From: Aureimonas sp. AU12
GTDB lineage: Bacteria > Pseudomonadota > Alphaproteobacteria > Rhizobiales > Rhizobiaceae
Length of the DNA stretch: 64,000 nt
Direction of reading: 5' to 3'
Assembly: GCF_001463705.1 (NCBI RefSeq)
Contig: NZ_BBWH01000040.1
Span: forward strand, 62,001-126,000
Of the stretch, positions 22,582-32,124 are shown piece after piece. The position numbers were made by a program, and so were the translations under genes. Each line of letters begins with the position of its first letter. Positions within the stretch are counted from its first letter, which is position 1. The notes below the pieces were generated by a model. The model made no database searches and was not told the origin of the DNA. It was given only the letters and a program-made list of their open reading frames with translations.

Positions 22582-23625
22582 TCAGGCGGCCTTGAGCATC
22601 CCCGCCGACTTCAGCGGCGCCTCGGTGATCGCACGGTCCTCGTCAAGCGAGCGGGTCGGCACGAAACCGCCCTTCTGCAGCTCGCCGTGATAGGCGCGCA
22701 CGCCCTCTTCCGGCGTCACCGCGCCGTCGGCGACCTGGCGCATGAGCGAGACCATCGCCAGCGGATCCTCGGCGAGGTTGATCTTGCGTCCGAACAGCGC
22801 GACGCGGGCGCCATAGCGTTCGGCCTGCGCCACCAGTTCGAACGTATCGCGGGTGGTGCCGACGCCGCCGCCGAGCACGCCGACGACGAGCGTCGAGTCG
22901 AAGCCGGCCAGTTCCTCCAGCGCCTTCGGGCCGTTGTAGACGATCTTGAGGAATTCCGGCCGGTTGGCCTTCGAGACGCCGGCGAGCGAGCGCAGGATGC
23001 AGTCGTTCATGAACTCGCCGAGGGCTTCGGGTGCGAGATCGGTCGGCACGTTCGGATTGAACACCTCGTAGAAATACTTGAAGCCGTTGGCCGCCGCGTC
23101 GCGCCGGAAGTCGGCGAAGGCCTCGAGCGAGCGCACGTCGGCGTCGAGATCGTTGTTGAAGGTGACGGAGTAGAGGCCGAGATCGGTGCCGGTGATCGGG
23201 GCGCCCGGCTGCGGCGTCTCGGTGCCGTACATGACCTGGGGCAGATAGGCGGTGCGGAAGGGCAGCGACATCGTCTGGACATAGCGATTGTGGCGCACGC
23301 CGCCCCAGCAGTCCGTCGTCTCGTTGGCGCGGATGGCGGGCTTGACCGCGCTTCCCTTGAAGGTGCCGCGCTCGTGCAGGAGGTCGAGGTTGGAGGCCGA
23401 CAGCAGCATGATGTCGACGATGTCCTGTTTCACCACGGCCTCGATGGCCTCGATGAACTCGTCGCGGGTCCGGCGGCGGCCGGGGCGCCCGTCGGCGCCG
23501 CGCAGGAAGCCGGTGCCGCTGACGCCCGACCCCATGTCGCTGTCCTTGGCGTCGGCGATGATGAAGTCCGAGCGCGTGTAGCGCCCCGACCGGATGTTGG
23601 CGAGTTTCTGGTCCAGCCTCAACAC
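22582..23625 (-). CDS. Class I aldolase-like beta/alpha-barrel protein (DeoC/FbaB superfamily)
   Basis: A 347-residue protein. FLKIVYNGP holds the likely Schiff-base lysine, and VGVLGGGVGTTRDTF followed by GARVALFGRKI matches the GG and phosphate-binding GR motifs of DhnA/FbaB-type class I aldolases. GTG 23625 has GGGAGAG five bases upstream. Longer frames upstream would run through the promoter. Divergent from the sugar-kinase gene, it probably cleaves the phosphorylated sugar made by this locus. The true substrate is unknown. Most of the N-terminal half is not like characterised aldolases that I recall. Confidence 0.7.
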   Translation of the reverse strand: MLRLDQKLANIRSGRYTRSDFIIADAKDSDMGSGVSGTGFLRGADGRPGRRRTRDEFIEAIEAVVKQDIVDIMLLSASNLDLLHERGTFKGSAVKPAIRANETTDCWGGVRHNRYVQTMSLPFRTAYLPQVMYGTETPQPGAPITGTDLGLYSVTFNNDLDADVRSLEAFADFRRDAAANGFKYFYEVFNPNVPTDLAPEALGEFMNDCILRSLAGVSKANRPEFLKIVYNGPKALEELAGFDSTLVVGVLGGGVGTTRDTFELVAQAERYGARVALFGRKINLAEDPLAMVSLMRQVADGAVTPEEGVRAYHGELQKGGFVPTRSLDEDRAITEAPLKSAGMLKAA

Positions 23626-23734
23626 GGCATCTCTCCCTGGCGGTTGCGGGACGGGGCGGCGCGGCGACGGCCGACGGTCCTGCCCTTTCCCATCCGGCGG
23701 CGACCCGACGAGGCGCTGCGGCCCGAACCCTATA

Positions 23735-23753
23735 ATTCCAAAATATTCCAAAA
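23735..23753. promoter_or_regulatory. Tandem direct repeat, candidate DeoR operator
   Basis: ATTCCAAAA occurs at 23735-23743 and again at 23745-23753, so the repeats are 10 bases apart, one helical turn. They lie about 110 bases upstream of the aldolase-like start and face the kinase operon on the other side. DeoR-family regulators often bind direct repeats, and a DeoR gene ends the operon. Binding is inferred. Confidence 0.4.
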
Positions 23754-23869
23754 GATAGGCACATTATCTCGAACGGGTTGCGGAGATGGCCGACGATGCG
23801 AATGCGCGCAATCCGTACCGTTCCGCCTCAAAGCACTTTACTGCATGGGTTTTCCATAAGGCGCGCAGA

Positions 23870-23880
23870 GTGCGACGCAC
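23870..23880. promoter_or_regulatory. Perfect palindrome in the divergent region
   Basis: GTGCG-A-CGCAC, five-base arms around one base, about 97 bases before the kinase start. It could be a regulator site; chance is not excluded. Confidence 0.25.
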
Positions 23881-23976
23881 CACGCCATGTTGCAGGACGA
23901 TGAACGTTTTTGATTGACGCTTGGATCATCTTGCAAACACATGAGACGCATTGAGGCCTCGTCTCGGAAGACCACC

Positions 23977-25242
23977 ATGTCCTCGCAGCCCCTGCTTCCC
24001 GACATGAAACTCCGCTACGAAGCGCTGGCCGGGCGGTTGCCGGATCTCGCCCGGACGGCTCCCGTGACGCTGTGCGGCATGAGCGCCTGCATCGATGCCC
24101 GGCTCGACATGAGCTCGATCGGGCCCCTTCTCGAAGCGCAGGAACCTCCCGAAGCCGCGGCGCTGGCGCGGCTGCTTCTCGAGCGCGCCGCGAGCGGCGT
24201 CGGCGGCGAGGTCCGGGTCGACTGGCCGGAGGGACCGGCCTGGCTCACCGAGCGACTGGCGCCGCGCACCGCGCTCGGCGGCGTCGGGCCACAGGCCGGC
24301 TGGGTGCTCGCGACGCTCGGCGCCGCCGCGCTGGTCAATCTCGAGGACCGCAGCGCTCACATGCTGGCGCATCTGCCGCCGCGCCTGCTCCTGGCGGAAG
24401 CCGGCGAGGCCGTGCGCGCCGATGGGGTCATACCCCATGGCGAGCGCCGGCCCGACATCTTCATCTTCGAATACACGGCGGGCGTCCCGGTCGGCCCGGT
24501 CGTGCCGGCGCGCTCCTCGCGCATCATCGTGCGCTTCGGCGATCCCGGCCTCGACCGGGACGAGGCGTTCGAGGCGCTGAGCGAGCGCGCGGCGGCCACC
24601 GCCGGCGCCGGACTGGTGGCCGGCTTCAACGGCGTCCCGCCGGCCGAGCTCGGCGGCGAGACCGCACGGATCTTCGCCCTGACGCGCCGCTGGCAGGCGG
24701 CGGGCCTTCGAACCGTCCATCTGGAGATGAGCGGCTTCGCCGATCCAACTTCGCGCGACACGGTGCTGGCGGCGGCCCGCGGCGCCGTCAGTTCGATCGG
24801 CATGAGCCTGTCGGAGTTCGACGATCTCGCCGGTCCCTGGAGCGGATCGGTGGCCTTCGGGCGGGCACTCGCCGCGCTCGGCGAACGGCTCGAATGCGGG
24901 CGCGTCTGCGTCCACGCCGATCACTGGGCCGCCAGCGCGACGCTCGGCGATCCCGGCACCGAGCACGAAGCGCTGATGACCGGATGCCTCGTTGCCAGCG
25001 CGCGCTCGGCCGCGGGCGTTCCCGTCATGCCGCACGGCGTGCCGGAGGGCGCGCGGTTCCACCCCTCGCCCTTCGAGCCCGGCGAGAGGCTGGGCCGCTG
25101 GCACCTCGTCTCCTGCCCCTCTCCCTATCTGGCGCAGCCGGCGACGACGCTCGGCCTCGGCGACAGCTTCACCGGCGGCTGCCTCCTCATCCTCGGTGCC
25201 GCGGCGTCGCGCGCGGCGATGCCCGTACGCAGGTCGGCCTGA
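23977..25242 (+). CDS. ADP-dependent phosphofructokinase/glucokinase-family sugar kinase
   Basis: About 421 residues in the ribokinase-like ADP-PFK/GK family known mainly from archaea. The catalytic GxGD motif is GLGDSFTGGCLL near the C-terminus, and the HxE motif is in TVHLEMSG. The usual NxxE magnesium motif seems to be SLSE in SIGMSLSEF, with Asn replaced by Ser. ATG 23977 has GGAAG six bases upstream; earlier ATGs at 23941 and 23914 are possible. As first gene of the polyol transporter operon it likely phosphorylates the sugar produced by the dehydrogenase. Nucleotide and sugar specificity are unknown. Confidence 0.75.
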   Translation: MSSQPLLPDMKLRYEALAGRLPDLARTAPVTLCGMSACIDARLDMSSIGPLLEAQEPPEAAALARLLLERAASGVGGEVRVDWPEGPAWLTERLAPRTALGGVGPQAGWVLATLGAAALVNLEDRSAHMLAHLPPRLLLAEAGEAVRADGVIPHGERRPDIFIFEYTAGVPVGPVVPARSSRIIVRFGDPGLDRDEAFEALSERAAATAGAGLVAGFNGVPPAELGGETARIFALTRRWQAAGLRTVHLEMSGFADPTSRDTVLAAARGAVSSIGMSLSEFDDLAGPWSGSVAFGRALAALGERLECGRVCVHADHWAASATLGDPGTEHEALMTGCLVASARSAAGVPVMPHGVPEGARFHPSPFEPGERLGRWHLVSCPSPYLAQPATTLGLGDSFTGGCLLILGAAASRAAMPVRRSA

Positions 25243-25325
25243 GACCGGCCAACCGTTCGAACAAGGCGGACGCTCAAGATCCGCGCAACCGCCGTCCGAC
25301 CGGACGGTGCAAACCGGAGGAAACG

Positions 25326-26639
<1,314 letters not shown>

Positions 26640-26645
26640 CGCCGA

Positions 26646-26678
26646 GCGCGGCGGCCGGCCCTCGGCGGGCCGCCGCGC
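26646..26678 (+). other. Intercistronic hairpin between binding protein and permease genes
   Basis: GCGCGGCGGCC (26646-26656) pairs perfectly with GGCCGCCGCGC (26668-26678) around an 11-base loop. It sits seven bases after the binding-protein stop, with no T-tract. Such hairpins commonly protect the 3' end of the highly expressed binding-protein message. Confidence 0.55.
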
Positions 26679-26757
26679 CCCATCGCCCCTGGCTTTCGTC
26701 CCCGGCCCCTGGCCGAGGCTGCCGAGGCCATCACCGCCGTCCCGGAAAACACCCGCC

Positions 26758-27654
26758 ATGCCCCCTCCCCCGCCCGGACCCAAGGACGGCCTCGGCCCCG
26801 CCGTCTCGACGCGCCCGCTGCTCGCGCCCGCCGTCGGCCTGCTGCTCGTCTGGTCGATCGTGCCGCTGGTGCTGACCCTGTGGTTCTCGGTGCAGCGCTA
26901 CAACCTTCTCGACTCGTCCGTCGGCGGCTTCGTCGGCTGGGGCAACTACGCCTTTCTCTTCTCCGACCCCAATCTCGGCAACGCGCTCCTCAACACGGTG
27001 CTGCTGGTGGGCGGCGTCCTCGTCGCCTCGGTCGTGTTCGGCCTCGCCTGCGCGGTGGCGCTCGACCAGTCCTTTCCCGGCCAGGGCATCGCCCGGCTTC
27101 TCTGCATCGCGCCCTTCTTCGTGATGCCGACGGTGAGCGCGCTGATCTGGAAGAACCTCCTGATGCACCCGGTGAACGGGCTCTTCGCCTATGTCTCGCG
27201 CAGCCTCGGCCTGCCGGTGATCGACTGGTTCGCGCAGTGGCCGCTCTTCTCGGTCGGCATCATCGTCGCCTGGCAGTGGATCCCCTTCGCGACGCTCATT
27301 CTTCTCACCTCGCTCCAGTCGCTCGACCGCGACCAGATCGAGGCGGCGCGCATGGACGGGGCGCGGGGCCTGCGCCTCTTCGCCTTCATCACGCTGCCGC
27401 ATCTCGCCCGCTCCATCACCATCGTGGTGATGATCGAGACGATCTTCCTCCTCTCGGTCTTCGCCGAGATCCTCGTGACCACCGCGGGCGGGCCCGGCAA
27501 CGCCTCCACGACGCTGCCCTTCCTCATCTACAAGACCGCGCTCCTCGACTACGACGTCGGCGGCGCCTCGGCGGGCGGCGTGCTGGCGATCGTCCTGGCC
27601 AACATCGTGGCGTTCTTCCTCGTGCGCACCATCGCCCACAATCTGGATCGCTGA
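26758..27654 (+). CDS. Polyol ABC transporter permease (SmoF/MtlF-like)
   Basis: A 298-residue inner-membrane protein with about six helices. The ATPase-contact EAA loop is EAARMDGARGLRLFAFITLP. It belongs to the MalF/UgpA class that pairs with a MalG-like partner, encoded three bases downstream. A proline-rich N-terminus precedes the first helix. Substrate is inferred to be a polyol from the associated binding protein. Confidence 0.9.
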   Translation: MPPPPPGPKDGLGPAVSTRPLLAPAVGLLLVWSIVPLVLTLWFSVQRYNLLDSSVGGFVGWGNYAFLFSDPNLGNALLNTVLLVGGVLVASVVFGLACAVALDQSFPGQGIARLLCIAPFFVMPTVSALIWKNLLMHPVNGLFAYVSRSLGLPVIDWFAQWPLFSVGIIVAWQWIPFATLILLTSLQSLDRDQIEAARMDGARGLRLFAFITLPHLARSITIVVMIETIFLLSVFAEILVTTAGGPGNASTTLPFLIYKTALLDYDVGGASAGGVLAIVLANIVAFFLVRTIAHNLDR

Positions 27655-27657
27655 CCC

Positions 27658-28479
27658 ATGGAAAAACCCCTGCGCCAGCGCCTTCTCGCCGCCTTCGCCG
27701 GATGGGGCGTGGCGCTCGTCATGTTCTTTCCGATCTTCTGGATGGCGCTCACCGCCTTCAAGCCCGAGCCGCTGGCGGTGGCGACGCCCCCCGTGCTCTT
27801 CTTCGAGCCGACGCTGCGCAACTTCCAGGTCGTGCTCGACCGGGCGAACTACCCGCACTTCTTCCTCAACAGCGTGATCGTCTCGGTCGGCTCGACGCTG
27901 CTCGGCCTCGCGGTCGGCCTGCCCGCGGCCTATGCGCTGGCCTTCTTTCCGGGCCAGCGCACGAAGGACATCCTCGTCTGGATGCTGTCGACGAAGATGA
28001 TGCCGGCGGTCGGCGTCCTCGTGCCGATCTACCTGATGTACAAGGCCGGCGGCCTCATCGACAGCCGGCTCGGGCTGATCCTCCTCTACATGCTGTCGAA
28101 CCTGCCGATCATCGTCTGGATGCTCTTCACCTTCTTTCGCGACGTGCCGAAGGAGATCCTCGAGGCCGCGCGGCTCGACGGCGCCAAGCCGTTGCGCCAG
28201 TTCCTCTATCTCCTCCTGCCGCTGACGGCGCCCGGCATCGCCTCCACCGCGCTGCTCTCGATCATCCTCGCCTGGAACGAGGCCTTCTGGAGCATCAACC
28301 TGACGGTGTCGCAGGCGACCCCGCTGACCGCCTTCATCGCCTCCTTCTCCAGTCCGCAGGGACTGTTCTGGTCGAAGCTCTCGGCCGCCTCGCTTCTCGC
28401 CATCGGGCCGATCCTCGTCTTCGGCTGGCTCACGCAGCGCCAGCTCGTGCGCGGCCTGACCTTCGGCGCCGTGAAATAG
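27658..28479 (+). CDS. Polyol ABC transporter permease (SmoG/MtlG-like)
   Basis: A 273-residue MalG-class inner-membrane permease with about six helices and the EAA loop EAARLDGAKPLRQFLYLLLP. It completes the membrane channel with the preceding permease. It starts three bases after that gene and ends nine bases before the ATPase gene, so they are clearly one operon. Confidence 0.9.
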   Translation: MEKPLRQRLLAAFAGWGVALVMFFPIFWMALTAFKPEPLAVATPPVLFFEPTLRNFQVVLDRANYPHFFLNSVIVSVGSTLLGLAVGLPAAYALAFFPGQRTKDILVWMLSTKMMPAVGVLVPIYLMYKAGGLIDSRLGLILLYMLSNLPIIVWMLFTFFRDVPKEILEAARLDGAKPLRQFLYLLLPLTAPGIASTALLSIILAWNEAFWSINLTVSQATPLTAFIASFSSPQGLFWSKLSAASLLAIGPILVFGWLTQRQLVRGLTFGAVK

Positions 28480-28488
28480 GATCCCGCC

Positions 28489-29616
28489 ATGGCCACCGTC
28501 ACCCTCGCCGACATCCGCAAGAGCTACGGCGCGCTCGAGGTCGTGAAGGGCGTCGACCTGACGATCGCCGACCGCGAGTTCATCGTGCTCGTCGGCCCCT
28601 CGGGCTGCGGCAAGACCACGCTCCTGCGCATGATCGCGGGGCTGGAGACGATCACCTCGGGCGAGCTTTCGATCGACGGGCGGCGCGTCAACGAGGTGGA
28701 ACCGGACGCGCGGGGCCTTGCCATGGTGTTCCAGTCCTACGCGCTCTATCCTCACATGAGCGTCGCCGACAACATGGGCTTCGCGCTGCGCATGGCCGGG
28801 GTCGGCAAGGCCGAACGGGCGCGCAAGGTGGGGGACGCCGCCCGCATCCTCCAGCTCGAACCCTATCTCGAGCGCAAGCCCGGCCAGCTGTCGGGCGGTC
28901 AGCGTCAGCGCGTGGCCATCGGGCGCGCCATCGTGCGCTCGCCCAAGGTCTTCCTCTTCGACGAGCCCCTGTCCAATCTTGACGCGGCGCTGCGCATGCA
29001 GATGCGCATCGAACTCGCCCGGCTGCACCGCGAGCTCGATGCCACGATGATCTACGTCACCCACGATCAGGTCGAGGCGATGACGCTCGCCGACCGCATC
29101 GTCGTGGTCAATGGCGGGCGCATCGAGCAGGTGGGCGCGCCGATGGAGATCTACGCCTCCCCCGCCACCGCCTTCGTCGCCGGCTTCATCGGCGCTCCGA
29201 AGATGAACCTTCTCGCCGGGCGGCTGCTGCGCCTCGCCGGCGGCGCCGCGGTGCTTCTCGAAGACGGCACCACGATCCCGCTGCCGCTCGCGCCCCCGCT
29301 GGCCGAGGGCGAGGCGGTGACGCTCGGCGTGCGCCCCGAGGCGGTGAGCGTCTCGGCCGCCGGCCCGCTTCCCGGCCGCGTCACGGTGGTCGAGCATCTG
29401 GGCGGCGAGACGCTGACCCATGTCGAGATCGCCGGCAACCGGCTCGTCACCGTCAAGACCGCCGAGACCGCGCCGGCCGGCGTCGGCGAGGCCGTGCGCC
29501 TCGCCTTCGACCCGGCCCGCCTGCATCTCTTCGGTCCGGACGGGCGCGCCGTTCCCCTCCACAGCCCCGCGGCATCCGGCGCCGCGATCCCCCTTCGCAC
29601 ACGGAAGCACGACTGA
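28489..29616 (+). CDS. Polyol ABC transporter ATP-binding protein (SmoK/MalK/UgpC-like)
   Basis: A 375-residue cytoplasmic ATPase. Walker A is [13 protein letters not shown], the signature [16 protein letters not shown], Walker [13 protein letters not shown], and the switch histidine is in [12 protein letters not shown]-terminal TOBE/regulatory domain (about residues 240-360) is typical for CUT1 sugar importers. The stop overlaps the dehydrogenase start by one base (TGATG). Confidence 0.93.
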
Positions 29617-30389
29617 TGTACAAGGACAAATACGACCTCACCGGCCGCGCCGCCTTCATCACCGGCGGCGGCCGCGGCATCGGGCTCTCGGCCGCCGAGG
29701 CCCTGCTCGAATGCGGCGCGACCGTCGTTCTCTCCGACCGCGACCCCGCCGTGCTCGAAGCCGGCCGGGCCGAGCTGGAGGCCAAGGGCTGGCGGGTGGA
29801 CACCGTGCCGCTCGACGTCACCGATTCCGCCGCCGTGGCCCGCGCGGCGGCCGCGGCCAACGAGCGCCACGGGGCGATCGACATCCTCGTCGCCAATGCC
29901 GGCATCGCCTGGCCCGATACGCCCGGCGAAAGCATGTCGGACGAGATCTGGCACAAGGTGGTCGATGTCGATCTCAACGGCTGCTACTGGTCGTGCCGCG
30001 AGTTTGGCCGCGCCATGCTGGCGCGCGGGCGCGGCTCGATCGTCACGATCGGCTCGATGTCGGGCCTCATCTCCAACAAGCCCCAGCGCCAGGTCCACTA
30101 CAACGCCGCCAAGGCCGGGGTGCACCACATGACCCGCTCGCTCGCCGGCGAATGGGCCGATCGCGGCGTGCGCGTCAACGCCATCGCGCCGACCTATGTC
30201 GACACCGCCATGTCGCGCGGCGGCTTCACCGACGACGCGTTGTTCCCGGTCTGGATGGACAGCACCCCGATGCGGCGCGTGGCGCGGGCCGACGAGATCG
30301 CCTCGGCCATCCTCTTCCTCGCCGTCGACGCCTCCAGCGCCATGACCGGCTCCGTGGTGGTGGTGGATTGCGGCTACACGATCTGGTAG
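29616..30389 (+). CDS. Short-chain dehydrogenase/reductase, probable polyol dehydrogenase
   Basis: A 257-residue classical SDR. The cofactor motif is TGGGRGIGLS, the NAG motif is VANAGIAWPD, the catalytic serine is in IGSMSGLI, and the catalytic Y and K are in VHYNAAKAG. Such enzymes oxidise sorbitol, D-arabinitol or similar polyols to ketoses with NAD(P). Overlap with the transporter ATPase gene strongly supports that it acts on the imported polyol. The exact polyol and the regiochemistry cannot be read from sequence. Confidence 0.9.
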   Translation: MYKDKYDLTGRAAFITGGGRGIGLSAAEALLECGATVVLSDRDPAVLEAGRAELEAKGWRVDTVPLDVTDSAAVARAAAAANERHGAIDILVANAGIAWPDTPGESMSDEIWHKVVDVDLNGCYWSCREFGRAMLARGRGSIVTIGSMSGLISNKPQRQVHYNAAKAGVHHMTRSLAGEWADRGVRVNAIAPTYVDTAMSRGGFTDDALFPVWMDSTPMRRVARADEIASAILFLAVDASSAMTGSVVVVDCGYTIW

Positions 30390-30466
30390 CGCCGCTTCTT
30401 CTCCGTTACGCGTGAGGCTTCCCGGCGGGGTGGCAGACCGCTTCCATTCAAGGCGAGGAGCATCCC

Positions 30467-31360
30467 ATCGACGCCAACCCGGACCCCGAGGCCGAGCCCC
30501 CTGCCGAGCCGGCGAACGCGGCCACCGGTCCGGTCGCCACGCGACGGATCGAGATCATCCCGGCCAAGCGCCGGGCGATGATCCTCGAATATCTGCGCGT
30601 CAGCGGCACCGCCTCGATCCAGGAACTGACCGACGCGATCGGCGGCTCGCAATCGACCATCCGGCGCGACCTCGAGCACCTGACGGAGGGCGGCTATCTC
30701 GAACGCACCCATGGCGGCGCGCTGCTCGTGCCCCTCGCGCGCGCCACGTTCGAGCGCGAGCCCTCGCTCAACGCCCATTTCCAGCATGCCCAGAAGGCCG
30801 CCATCGGGGGGCTCGCCGCCTCGCGGCTGAAGGGCGGCGAGAGCGTCATCTTCGATTCCAGCTCCACCGTGATCGAGGCGGTGAAGGCGGCGGCGCTGCG
30901 CGACCTGACGCTGACGGTGGTGACGAACAACCTCGAGATCGCGCGGATCGGATCGAGCGTCCCGCGCTGGCGGGTCGTGTGCACCGGCGGCACGGTGCGG
31001 CCGGGCTCCGACATCATGCTCGGCGAACCCGGCGAATCCTTCTTCGAGACGATCCATGCCGACATCTGCTTCACCGGCACCTATGCCGTGACCGGCACGA
31101 TCCTGACGGACGCCTCGATGGAGGTCGCCTCGATCAAGCGCGCGATGATCCGCTCGGCGCGGCGCACGATCGTGCTCGCCGACAGCGCCAAGTTCCAGGC
31201 GCCGGCCTTCTGCACCTTCGCCACGCTCTCGCAGATCGCGGAGGTGATCACCGACGACGGCATCGACGCGGACGTGGCGGCGAGTCTTCGCGCCGGCGGC
31301 ACGATCCTGTCGATCGCGGATGTCCCGGCGGCGGGATCGTTGCCGCGCGACAGGGGCTAG
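30467..31360 (+). CDS. DeoR-family transcriptional regulator of the sugar locus (possible ATC start)
   Basis: An N-terminal DeoR winged helix-turn-helix (SIQELTDAIGGSQSTIRRDL, then THGGAL) is followed by a sugar-phosphate-sensing domain (VIFDSSSTVIEAV, TVVTNNLEIA, CTGGTVR). The first ATG in this frame is 30578, which would cut off the residues PAKRRA that normally open the domain. Upstream, codons from 30467 have G or C in nearly every third position, and GAGGAG lies six bases before an ATC at 30467. No ATG, GTG or TTG occurs in that stretch. Either ATC is the start, or one base is miscalled. Last gene of the polyol operon; probably its repressor. Confidence 0.85.
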   Translation: MDANPDPEAEPPAEPANAATGPVATRRIEIIPAKRRAMILEYLRVSGTASIQELTDAIGGSQSTIRRDLEHLTEGGYLERTHGGALLVPLARATFEREPSLNAHFQHAQKAAIGGLAASRLKGGESVIFDSSSTVIEAVKAAALRDLTLTVVTNNLEIARIGSSVPRWRVVCTGGTVRPGSDIMLGEPGESFFETIHADICFTGTYAVTGTILTDASMEVASIKRAMIRSARRTIVLADSAKFQAPAFCTFATLSQIAEVITDDGIDADVAASLRAGGTILSIADVPAAGSLPRDRG

Positions 31361-31413: not shown

Positions 31414-31935
31414 CTAGGCCGGCCGCAAACCAGCCGCGAAGCGTCGAGCGTTCGCGACATAGGTGCGGGCCGAGCGCCTGAGGCCCTCGATCGCCTCGGC
31501 GTCGAGCGCGCGCACGATCTTGGCGGGCACGCCGACCACGAGGCTGCCGTCCGGGATCGCCTTACCCTCGGTGACGAGTGCCCCGGCGCCGATGAGGCAG
31601 TCGCGCCCGATGCGCGCGCCGTTGAGAATGGTGGCGCCCATGCCGATCAGCGTGTTGTCGCCGATGCTGCAGCCGTGGACGATGGCGCGGTGGCCGATCG
31701 TGCAGCCCTCGCCGATCGCGACGGGGTGGCCGGGATCGGTGTGGATCATCACCATCTCCTGGATGTTGGTGCGCGCGCCCACCGTGATCGGCTCGTTGTC
31801 GCCGCGCAGCACCGCGCCGAACCAGACACCGACCTCGGCGCCGAGCACGACCTGCCCGATCACGTCGGCGCTCGGCGCGATCCAGCCGCCTTCGCCGATC
31901 TGCGGCGCCGCGTCGCCCAGCCGATAGATGCCCAT
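31414..31935 (-). CDS. Gamma-class carbonic anhydrase-like protein (PaaY/YrdA family)
   Basis: A 173-residue left-handed beta-helix protein made of hexapeptide repeats ([20 protein letters not shown] and later [13 protein letters not shown]). Metal-site histidines are seen in MIHTDPGHP and IGHRAIVHG. Family members form trimers with metal at subunit interfaces; some are carbonic anhydrases, others have unknown activity. ATG 31935 has GGGAA upstream. It is convergent with the DeoR gene and divergent from the Tad genes. Confidence 0.88.
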
Positions 31936-32124
31936 GGCGCTTCCCTCTTCTCTCTCGTCTTCGCCCGCATAGACGCATGCCGGTGCGCGTTCCTCAAGGA
32001 TCGAAGCGGCAGCCGACGCCGGAGAACCGCTCGATTCCATCGCGTCCGATCCAGTCTCCTCCAAAGCTTTAAGTGGATCACAAGCTTTGTCAGCAAAGCT
32101 GATGGTCGGGGAGACGAACGTCGA

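What the first reader, a model, noticed from the sequence alone, without database searches (positions are those of the whole stretch)
22582..31360. Possible uncharacterised polyol pathway using an ADP-dependent-family kinase and a class I aldolase
Seen: a DeoC/FbaB-type aldolase-like gene divergent from an operon of ADP-PFK/GK-family kinase, SmoE-like binding protein, two permeases, ATPase, SDR and DeoR. Known: classical sorbitol/mannitol loci use a dehydrogenase with a ribokinase- or FGGY-type kinase, and ADP-dependent kinases are mostly archaeal glycolytic enzymes. Inference: the polyol is imported, oxidised to a ketose, phosphorylated by an unusual kinase and split by a distinct aldolase. 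I do not know a described bacterial pathway with this set.
Basis: partly seen in the sequence, partly recalled or inferred. Interest (0 to 1): 0.7.

Follow-up and report, generated by a model that had tools for sequence, protein, structure and literature searches.

The report
Polyol operon with archaeal-type sugar kinase
A bacterium related to Aureimonas carries a sugar-alcohol uptake operon that appears to oxidise the alcohol to a ketose, tag it with phosphate using a kinase of a family best known from archaeal glycolysis, and cut it with an aldolase that the family databases searched do not recognise; the order of steps is inferred, not assayed.

Summary
The kinase belongs to the ADP-PFK/GK family (PF04587; profile against PDB E=2.8e-39; model pLDDT 95.6). 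The aldolase matches no Pfam, NCBIfam or PHROGs model, but its model folds as a class I aldolase, with an invariant lysine on the sixth strand. The binding protein is close to 4RYA, a D-mannitol-binding protein; the SDR is closest to polyol and galactitol dehydrogenases. Coupling is strong: of 78 kinase loci from a public genome scan, 47 carry this aldolase within 8 kb, 15 a LacD/YihT-like one and 7 a class II GatY-like one. Conversely, 17 of 25 aldolase loci without the kinase have a PfkB kinase within 1 kb. Most likely: hexitol to ketohexose to ketohexose phosphate (probably 1-phosphate) to DHAP plus glyceraldehyde. The polyol front end is an add-on: 49 of 79 loci lack a close SDR. Not shown: the ketose, the phosphorylated carbon, ADP versus ATP, aldolase activity. 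Nine searches of an open-access library listed no such pathway.

The parts
22582..23625 (-). class I-type aldolase of an unnamed family (ALD); likely start GTG 23625; candidate Schiff-base lysine K259 in the numbering of the 379-aa translation of 22582-23721
   Evidence: no Pfam, NCBIfam or PHROGs hit; profile weakly hits LsrF E=0.003; model mean pLDDT 77.8; Foldseek best hits LacD, archaeal FBP aldolase, YihT; K259, E219, G284, G285, G311, R312 identical in 42 of 42 rows
23626..23976 (.). intergenic region between the divergent genes, probable divergent promoters
   Evidence: ATTGACAGA occurs in 15 of 23 chosen related intergenic regions, against at most 5 for any 9-mer in 20 shuffled sets, relatedness not controlled; the window itself has ATTGACG
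23977..25242 (+). sugar kinase of the ADP-dependent PFK/glucokinase family (KIN); start 23977, possibly 23941
   Evidence: PF04587 E=3.9e-8; 56-row profile against archaeal ADP-kinases E=2.8e-39; model pLDDT 95.6; first 22 Foldseek rows are ADP-dependent kinases
25326..26639 (+). periplasmic hexitol-binding protein of a CUT1-type ABC transporter
   Evidence: 573.6 bits to 4RYA over 419 residues; 4RYA is called a D-mannitol-binding protein in PMC12718374 (passages)
26758..27654 (+). ABC transporter permease 1
   Evidence: PF00528 9e-15
27658..28479 (+). ABC transporter permease 2
   Evidence: PF00528 1.8e-14
28489..29616 (+). ABC transporter ATPase (UgpC/MalK type)
   Evidence: PF00005 1.5e-32, TOBE_2; NF008653 493 bits, cut-off 432
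29616..30389 (+). short-chain polyol dehydrogenase
   Evidence: best solved relatives 3awd putative polyol dehydrogenase E=4e-75 and 2wdz galactitol dehydrogenase E=1.6e-58
30578..31360 (+). DeoR-family regulator, probable repressor of both transcription units (inferred)
   Evidence: PF08220 and PF00455; a relative of at least 50% identity lies within 8 kb of the kinase in 37 of 79 loci, window included

Best explanation
This is an inducible hexitol (mannitol- or sorbitol-like) catabolic operon. The CUT1 ABC transporter imports the polyol; the SDR oxidises it to a ketohexose; the ADP-PFK/GK-family kinase phosphorylates the free ketose, probably at C1; the new class I-type aldolase splits the ketose 1-phosphate into DHAP and glyceraldehyde; DeoR represses until a phosphorylated intermediate appears. 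In effect it is a bacterial counterpart of liver fructolysis (ketohexokinase plus aldolase B) that needs no 6-phosphofructokinase. Shown here: gene identities, kinase family and fold, aldolase fold, and conserved kinase-aldolase coupling with swaps on both sides. Inferred: the polyol, the ketose, the phosphorylated carbon, the nucleotide, the products and the regulation.
For: Coupling: of 78 kinase loci 47 have ALD within 8 kb, 15 a LacD-like aldolase, 7 a GatY-like class II aldolase, 9 none by these searches. Of the 9, L050 shows a 53-aa ALD piece at a contig edge, L109 a DhnA-like aldolase fragment upstream, read by eye, and L090, L112 and L118 lie on contigs that end near the kinase. On the kinase tree ALD partners appear in three separate places: an 11-row clade, the window's 40-row clade, and L084. 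Reverse swap: 17 of 25 ALD loci without the kinase have a PfkB kinase within 1 kb, 15 of them within 200 bp; L128 and L129 have an FGGY kinase. Free-sugar acceptor: E90 of an ancestral ADP-PFK, conserved in glucokinase-type and bifunctional enzymes, corresponds to E79, kept in 63 of 65 rows; K179 and N181, contacts of the F6P phosphate, fall on position 160 (P in 49 of 65) and 162 (H 36, I 27) (passages of PMC7948494; the mapping is mine). Ketose 1-phosphate: the LacD-like replacement is nearest, among named aldolases, to the sulfofructose-phosphate aldolase YihT (99.7 bits, LacD 85.7), after an uncharacterised DUF2090 protein (146 bits). Polyol. The genome has no PF00365 phosphofructokinase.
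Against: No enzyme assay. ALD shows no profile-profile relation to the LacD-like family, so the catalytic lysine is placed by strand order and invariance only, and the ALD model is moderate (pLDDT 77.8). None of the eight genes looks like an enzyme for glyceraldehyde. LacD and GatY type enzymes are best known for 1,6-bisphosphates. R187 of the kinase (58 of 65) could bind a phosphate. 49 of 79 loci lack a close SDR, so the polyol cannot be the general substrate. In G050 and G071 kinase and ALD are apart. L111, L115, L119 and L121 have sequence around the kinase but I saw no aldolase there (by eye, not scanned with Pfam). For 6 of the 25 ALD loci without the kinase no sugar kinase was identified.
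Confidence: 0.57

Rival explanations
1. Bisphosphate route: another kinase makes the ketose 6-phosphate, the ADP-PFK/GK-family kinase adds the second phosphate as ADP-PFK does, and the aldolase splits a ketose 1,6-bisphosphate into two triose phosphates (tagatose-pathway logic).
For: Archaeal ADP-PFKs act on F6P; LacD and GatY type partners are best known for bisphosphates; in Aureimonas L048 a PfkB kinase and a GatZ-like protein lie one ORF beyond DeoR.
Against: The window operon has one sugar kinase and an ABC importer, which does not phosphorylate; glucokinase-type E79 is kept and the K179/N181 contacts are not; loci such as L083, L087 and L095 hold little more than ABC, kinase, aldolase and DeoR.
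Confidence: 0.17
2. Ketose 6-phosphate route: the kinase phosphorylates the ketose at C6 and the aldolase works like fructose-6-phosphate aldolase, giving dihydroxyacetone and glyceraldehyde 3-phosphate.
For: ADP-glucokinases phosphorylate glucose at C6 (recalled); a furanose ketose could bind either way.
Against: ALD keeps glycines after strand 7 and a G-R after strand 8, the usual site of the DHAP phosphate in class I aldolases (recalled; residues); the listed Foldseek hits are mostly DHAP-type aldolases; no dihydroxyacetone kinase among the eight genes.
Confidence: 0.1
3. Kinase and aldolase belong to one regulon but not consecutive steps: the kinase feeds a ketose 6-phosphate to the Entner-Doudoroff route, and ALD does an unrelated reaction, for example an LsrF-like thiolysis.
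For: ALD is divergent, not in the kinase operon; it occurs without this kinase in 17 of 26 ALD-bearing genomes; its best PDB profile hit is LsrF, E=0.003.
Against: Replacement of ALD by other aldolase families next to the same kinase, and of the kinase by PfkB next to the same aldolase.
Confidence: 0.1

Closest known systems
Rhodobacter sphaeroides smo/mtl polyol operon and SDR196C sorbitol dehydrogenase clusters (passages of PMC3458964)
   Same: ABC transporter, polyol dehydrogenase, often a sugar kinase and a regulator together
   Different: kinases named in the passages are ribitol, fructose, hexo-, tagatose-6-phosphate and similar kinases; no ADP-PFK/GK-family kinase there; the aldolases named are KDPG and tagatose-bisphosphate aldolase
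Haloarcula hispanica mannitol/sorbitol pathway (abstract and conclusion of PMC11519228)
   Same: CUT1 uptake, oxidation to fructose, phosphorylation to fructose 1-phosphate
   Different: uses ketohexokinase, then 1-phosphofructokinase and an FBP aldolase; here one kinase of another family and an aldolase that would cut the 1-phosphate directly
Archaeal ADP-dependent PFK/glucokinase (PF04587; abstract and passages of PMC7948494)
   Same: family profile, fold, GXGD, HXE, (N/S)XXE, glucokinase-type E79
   Different: 15-18% identity in the structural matches, bacterial polyol context, no F6P-phosphate lysine
Sulfoglycolytic YihV/YihT pair
   Same: one kinase making a ketose 1-phosphate for a class I aldolase (recalled); YihT is a fold match of ALD and a sequence relative of the replacement aldolase
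   Different: different kinase family, substrate and aldolase family
Galactitol/altritol pathway with GatZ-like enzyme in Agrobacterium (recalled)
   Same: a PfkB kinase and a GatZ-like protein neighbour the locus in Aureimonas L048
   Different: those genes are not in the window operon

Membership tests
ADP-dependent PFK/GK family (PF04587) | profile match above curated cut-off | tested here: met
   32.8 bits, cut-off 27; alignment profile against archaeal members E=2.8e-39
ADP-dependent PFK/GK family (PF04587) | two-domain ribokinase-like fold nearest to known members | tested here: met
   Foldseek E=1.4e-25 to 4.9e-18 for ranks 1-22, next 1.0e-8, a guanosine kinase
ADP-dependent PFK/GK family (PF04587) | GXGD, HXE and NXXE/DXXE motifs | tested here: met
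   G394, L395, G396, D397 each 65/65; H249 59/65 and E251 65/65; position 278 S 42 or N 23 and E281 65/65; the window has S at the N position
ADP-dependent PFK/GK family (PF04587) | ADP as phosphoryl donor | not testable with these tools
   needs an assay
ADP-PFK subgroup | F6P-phosphate ligands K179 and N181 | tested here: not met
   aligned positions 160 (P 49 of 65) and 162 (H 36, I 27 of 65); mapping is mine
Class I aldolase superfamily | TIM barrel nearest to class I aldolases | tested here: met
   85 Foldseek matches at E<=0.001, 50 listed, all class I aldolases or relatives such as ADH synthase and LsrF
Class I aldolase superfamily | Schiff-base lysine on strand 6 | tested here: inconclusive
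   K259 invariant in 42/42 on strand 257-261, the sixth listed; no superposition made
DeoC/LacD family (PF01791) | sequence profile match | tested here: not met
   no Pfam hit at E<=0.01; hhalign against a 13-row LacD-like family E=0.96
Classical smo/mtl polyol operon | CUT1 transporter plus polyol dehydrogenase | tested here: met
   the only sugar kinase among the eight genes is PF04587

The most novel reading that the evidence does not exclude
Bacteria in several phyla run a ketose kinase-aldolase shunt with a kinase that truly spends ADP, not ATP, and in Hyphomicrobiales pair it with a new family of class I aldolase specific for ketose 1-phosphates. It would let organisms without 6-phosphofructokinase turn hexitols directly into trioses.
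Probability: 0.25. Interest if true: 0.8.

Novelty: new variant of a known kind. Interest (0 to 1): 0.6.

Why it matters
It would give a function to a bacterial branch of the ADP-dependent kinase family, name an aldolase family that Pfam and NCBIfam do not hold, and add a liver-like fructolysis route to bacteria that lack 6-phosphofructokinase. The swapping of aldolases beside one kinase, and of kinases beside one aldolase, makes the pathway directly testable with two purified proteins and a panel of ketoses.

Tried and rejected
Single-sequence PDB searches with kinase and aldolase gave nothing meaningful; profiles were needed. Aldolase as DeoC/LacD member: rejected by sequence. A class-wide sample held the kinase in none of 384 genomes besides the window's own, yet the named scan found it in Acetobacteraceae, Verrucomicrobiota, Bacillota and others, so the first impression of a narrow spread was wrong. 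Palindromic DeoR operator: none stood out; only a promoter-like element. Paper searches for a described pathway, for PF04587 or for 4RYA (listings) showed no such pathway; the library lacks most subscription papers, and the abstract of PMC7948494 says that ADP-dependent kinases were reported in bacteria. Passages of PMC12203962 did not mention one either. PHROGs gave nothing. The own-genome SDR search showed six weaker paralogues. The binding protein of the Verrucomicrobiota locus L083 is nearest to trehalose/maltose-binding proteins, which does not name its ketose.

Rows dropped and limits: the 78 loci are the distinct loci among the best 80 of 93 relatives found by two peptide patterns. One search left out 12 rows (4 kinase, 8 aldolase) whose best stretch ran through a stop, and short rows, and collapsed the rest at 90% identity; I left L078 out of A3 and A5 by hand. 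The tree holds 79 of 90 kinase places: those dropped, a short one, one without a hit, and five duplicate genomes are missing. Two of its five ALD changes are L050 (aldolase cut by a contig end) and L124 (aldolase elsewhere in the genome), and the branch that parts the two ALD clades is not starred (90/93). The LacD, GatY and PfkB queries were chosen after seeing the neighbourhoods; no random-neighbourhood control was run. Of 26 aldolase places without the kinase, 25 were fetched; the partial match in G175 was not.
Full report
What is there. The window (contig C40 of a 4.67-Mb genome) holds ALD 22582-23625 (minus) divergent from KIN 23977-25242, SBP 25326-26639, two permeases, ATPase, SDR and DeoR up to 31360. 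Pfam confirms every gene except ALD, which matches nothing in Pfam or NCBIfam. The nearest named relatives of the kinase are in Aureimonas, so the host is probably in or near Aurantimonadaceae (inference).

The kinase. One sequence alone finds no meaningful PDB relative. A profile of 56 sequences finds 14 distinct archaeal, ancestral or mouse ADP-dependent kinase sequences at E=3.7e-22 or better, best 2.8e-39. The model is excellent (pLDDT 95.6) and Foldseek ranks 1-22 are ADP-dependent kinases. D397, E251 and E281 are invariant in 65 rows. Using the residue roles in PMC7948494 (abstract and passages), E79 corresponds to the glucose-orienting E90, kept in 63 of 65, while the positions of the F6P-phosphate contacts K179 and N181 hold mostly P, and H or I; this favours a free sugar as acceptor. 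The mapping rests on the printed profile alignments and is mine. Donor specificity cannot be read from sequence.

The aldolase. A 22-row profile weakly hits LsrF, E=0.003. The model (pLDDT 77.8) matches LacD, archaeal FBP aldolase, M. jannaschii ADH synthase, YihT and animal class I aldolases, E=1.1e-6 to 6.5e-5 for the 50 rows listed. D57, K59, E219, K259, G284, G285, G311 and R312 are identical in 42 of 42 rows. K259 lies on the sixth strand, after E219's strand, as the Schiff-base lysine does in class I aldolases (recalled). Against close kinship: no profile-profile relation to the LacD-like partner family.

Coupling. In 249 genomes of the order the kinase is in 11, the aldolase in 26, both in 9. 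In seven of the nine the two genes are within 2 kb in at least one place (coordinates); in G050 and G071 they are apart. In the named scan, 78 loci divide into 47 with ALD, 15 with a LacD-like aldolase (PF01791), 7 with a class II aldolase (PF01116) and 9 with none found within 8 kb. Some of the nine are cut by contig ends or show an aldolase fragment; in L111, L115, L119 and L121 I saw none. The kinase tree (79 rows) needs 5 changes for ALD, against a shuffled mean of 23.6; two of the five are L050 and L124, which are not true losses. ALD partners sit in an 11-row clade, in the window's 40-row clade and at L084, the first collinear with the kinase (for example L095, L101) and the second mostly divergent from it; the branch between the two clades is 90/93, short of the starred level. 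Kaistia has two kinase copies about 9.5 kb apart (G099), one beside LacD and one beside ALD. The reverse also holds: of 25 fetched ALD loci without the kinase, 17 have a PfkB kinase within 1 kb, and L128 and L129 an FGGY kinase; for the other six no kinase was identified, not all their genes being scanned.

The polyol part. Among 79 loci (78 and the window), all 10 with an SBP at least 50% identical to the window's also have the SDR and ALD; 20 more have the SDR without that SBP, one of them (L050) with its ALD cut by the contig edge; the remaining 49 lack an SDR of 60% identity or more, 41 of these having an aldolase partner (19 ALD, 15 LacD-like, 7 GatY-like). Some of the 49 carry a more distant SDR, for example L108 and L122. 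The SBP scores 573.6 bits to 4RYA, described as a D-mannitol-binding protein in PMC12718374 (passages); a WSW stretch of 4RYA, probably the two tryptophans named there, is kept in the window. The SDR is nearest to a putative polyol dehydrogenase (3awd) and galactitol dehydrogenase (2wdz). So this copy probably handles a hexitol, and the module elsewhere probably takes a sugar directly.

Mechanism and limits. The best reading is hexitol, ketohexose, ketohexose 1-phosphate, DHAP plus glyceraldehyde. The genome has no PF00365 phosphofructokinase, which would make such a bypass useful; a PfkB-type enzyme was not excluded. Each chemical step is inferred. The ketose could be D-fructose, L-sorbose or a tagatose; nothing here decides.

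Comparison with what is known. Haloarcula hispanica degrades mannitol and sorbitol through fructose 1-phosphate but phosphorylates it again before an FBP aldolase (PMC11519228, abstract and conclusion). Alphaproteobacterial polyol clusters described earlier name other kinases (PMC3458964, passages). Nine paper searches listed no description of a bacterial ADP-PFK/GK-family kinase with this aldolase; the library is open-access only.

Verdict. A real, conserved kinase-aldolase module, assembled with different partners, with a polyol front end in this genome; a new variant of a known kind of pathway, with an unnamed aldolase family as the most original part.

Noticed in passing
genome G000 contig C4:237202-238191 (L142): The window's genome has a second copy of the unnamed aldolase, 51% identical, directly beside a PfkB-family kinase gene.
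   Followed up: partly
L048:14001-16309: In Aureimonas phyllosphaerae a PfkB kinase and a GatZ/KbaZ-like gene lie one ORF downstream of DeoR, a possible tagatose branch in the same region; the GatZ-like cluster occurs in four Aureimonas loci.
   Followed up: partly
L126:4465-11138: In one family of the order (f50) the aldolase sits a few genes from enolase and beside a DeoR relative, with no ADP-type kinase nearby.
   Followed up: no
L132:2950-14914: Kaistia carries two ADP-PFK/GK-family kinases in one cluster, one next to a LacD-like aldolase and one next to the new aldolase.
   Followed up: partly
L113, L114, L117, L120, L122: Bacillota have distant members of the kinase family (22-24% identity, 21% for L117) with GatY-like class II aldolases within 5 kb; four of these five also have CUT1-like permeases.
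   Followed up: no
window about 31414-31940 (minus): Next to the operon an ORF reads like a gamma-carbonic-anhydrase-type hexapeptide protein; judged by eye only.
   Followed up: no
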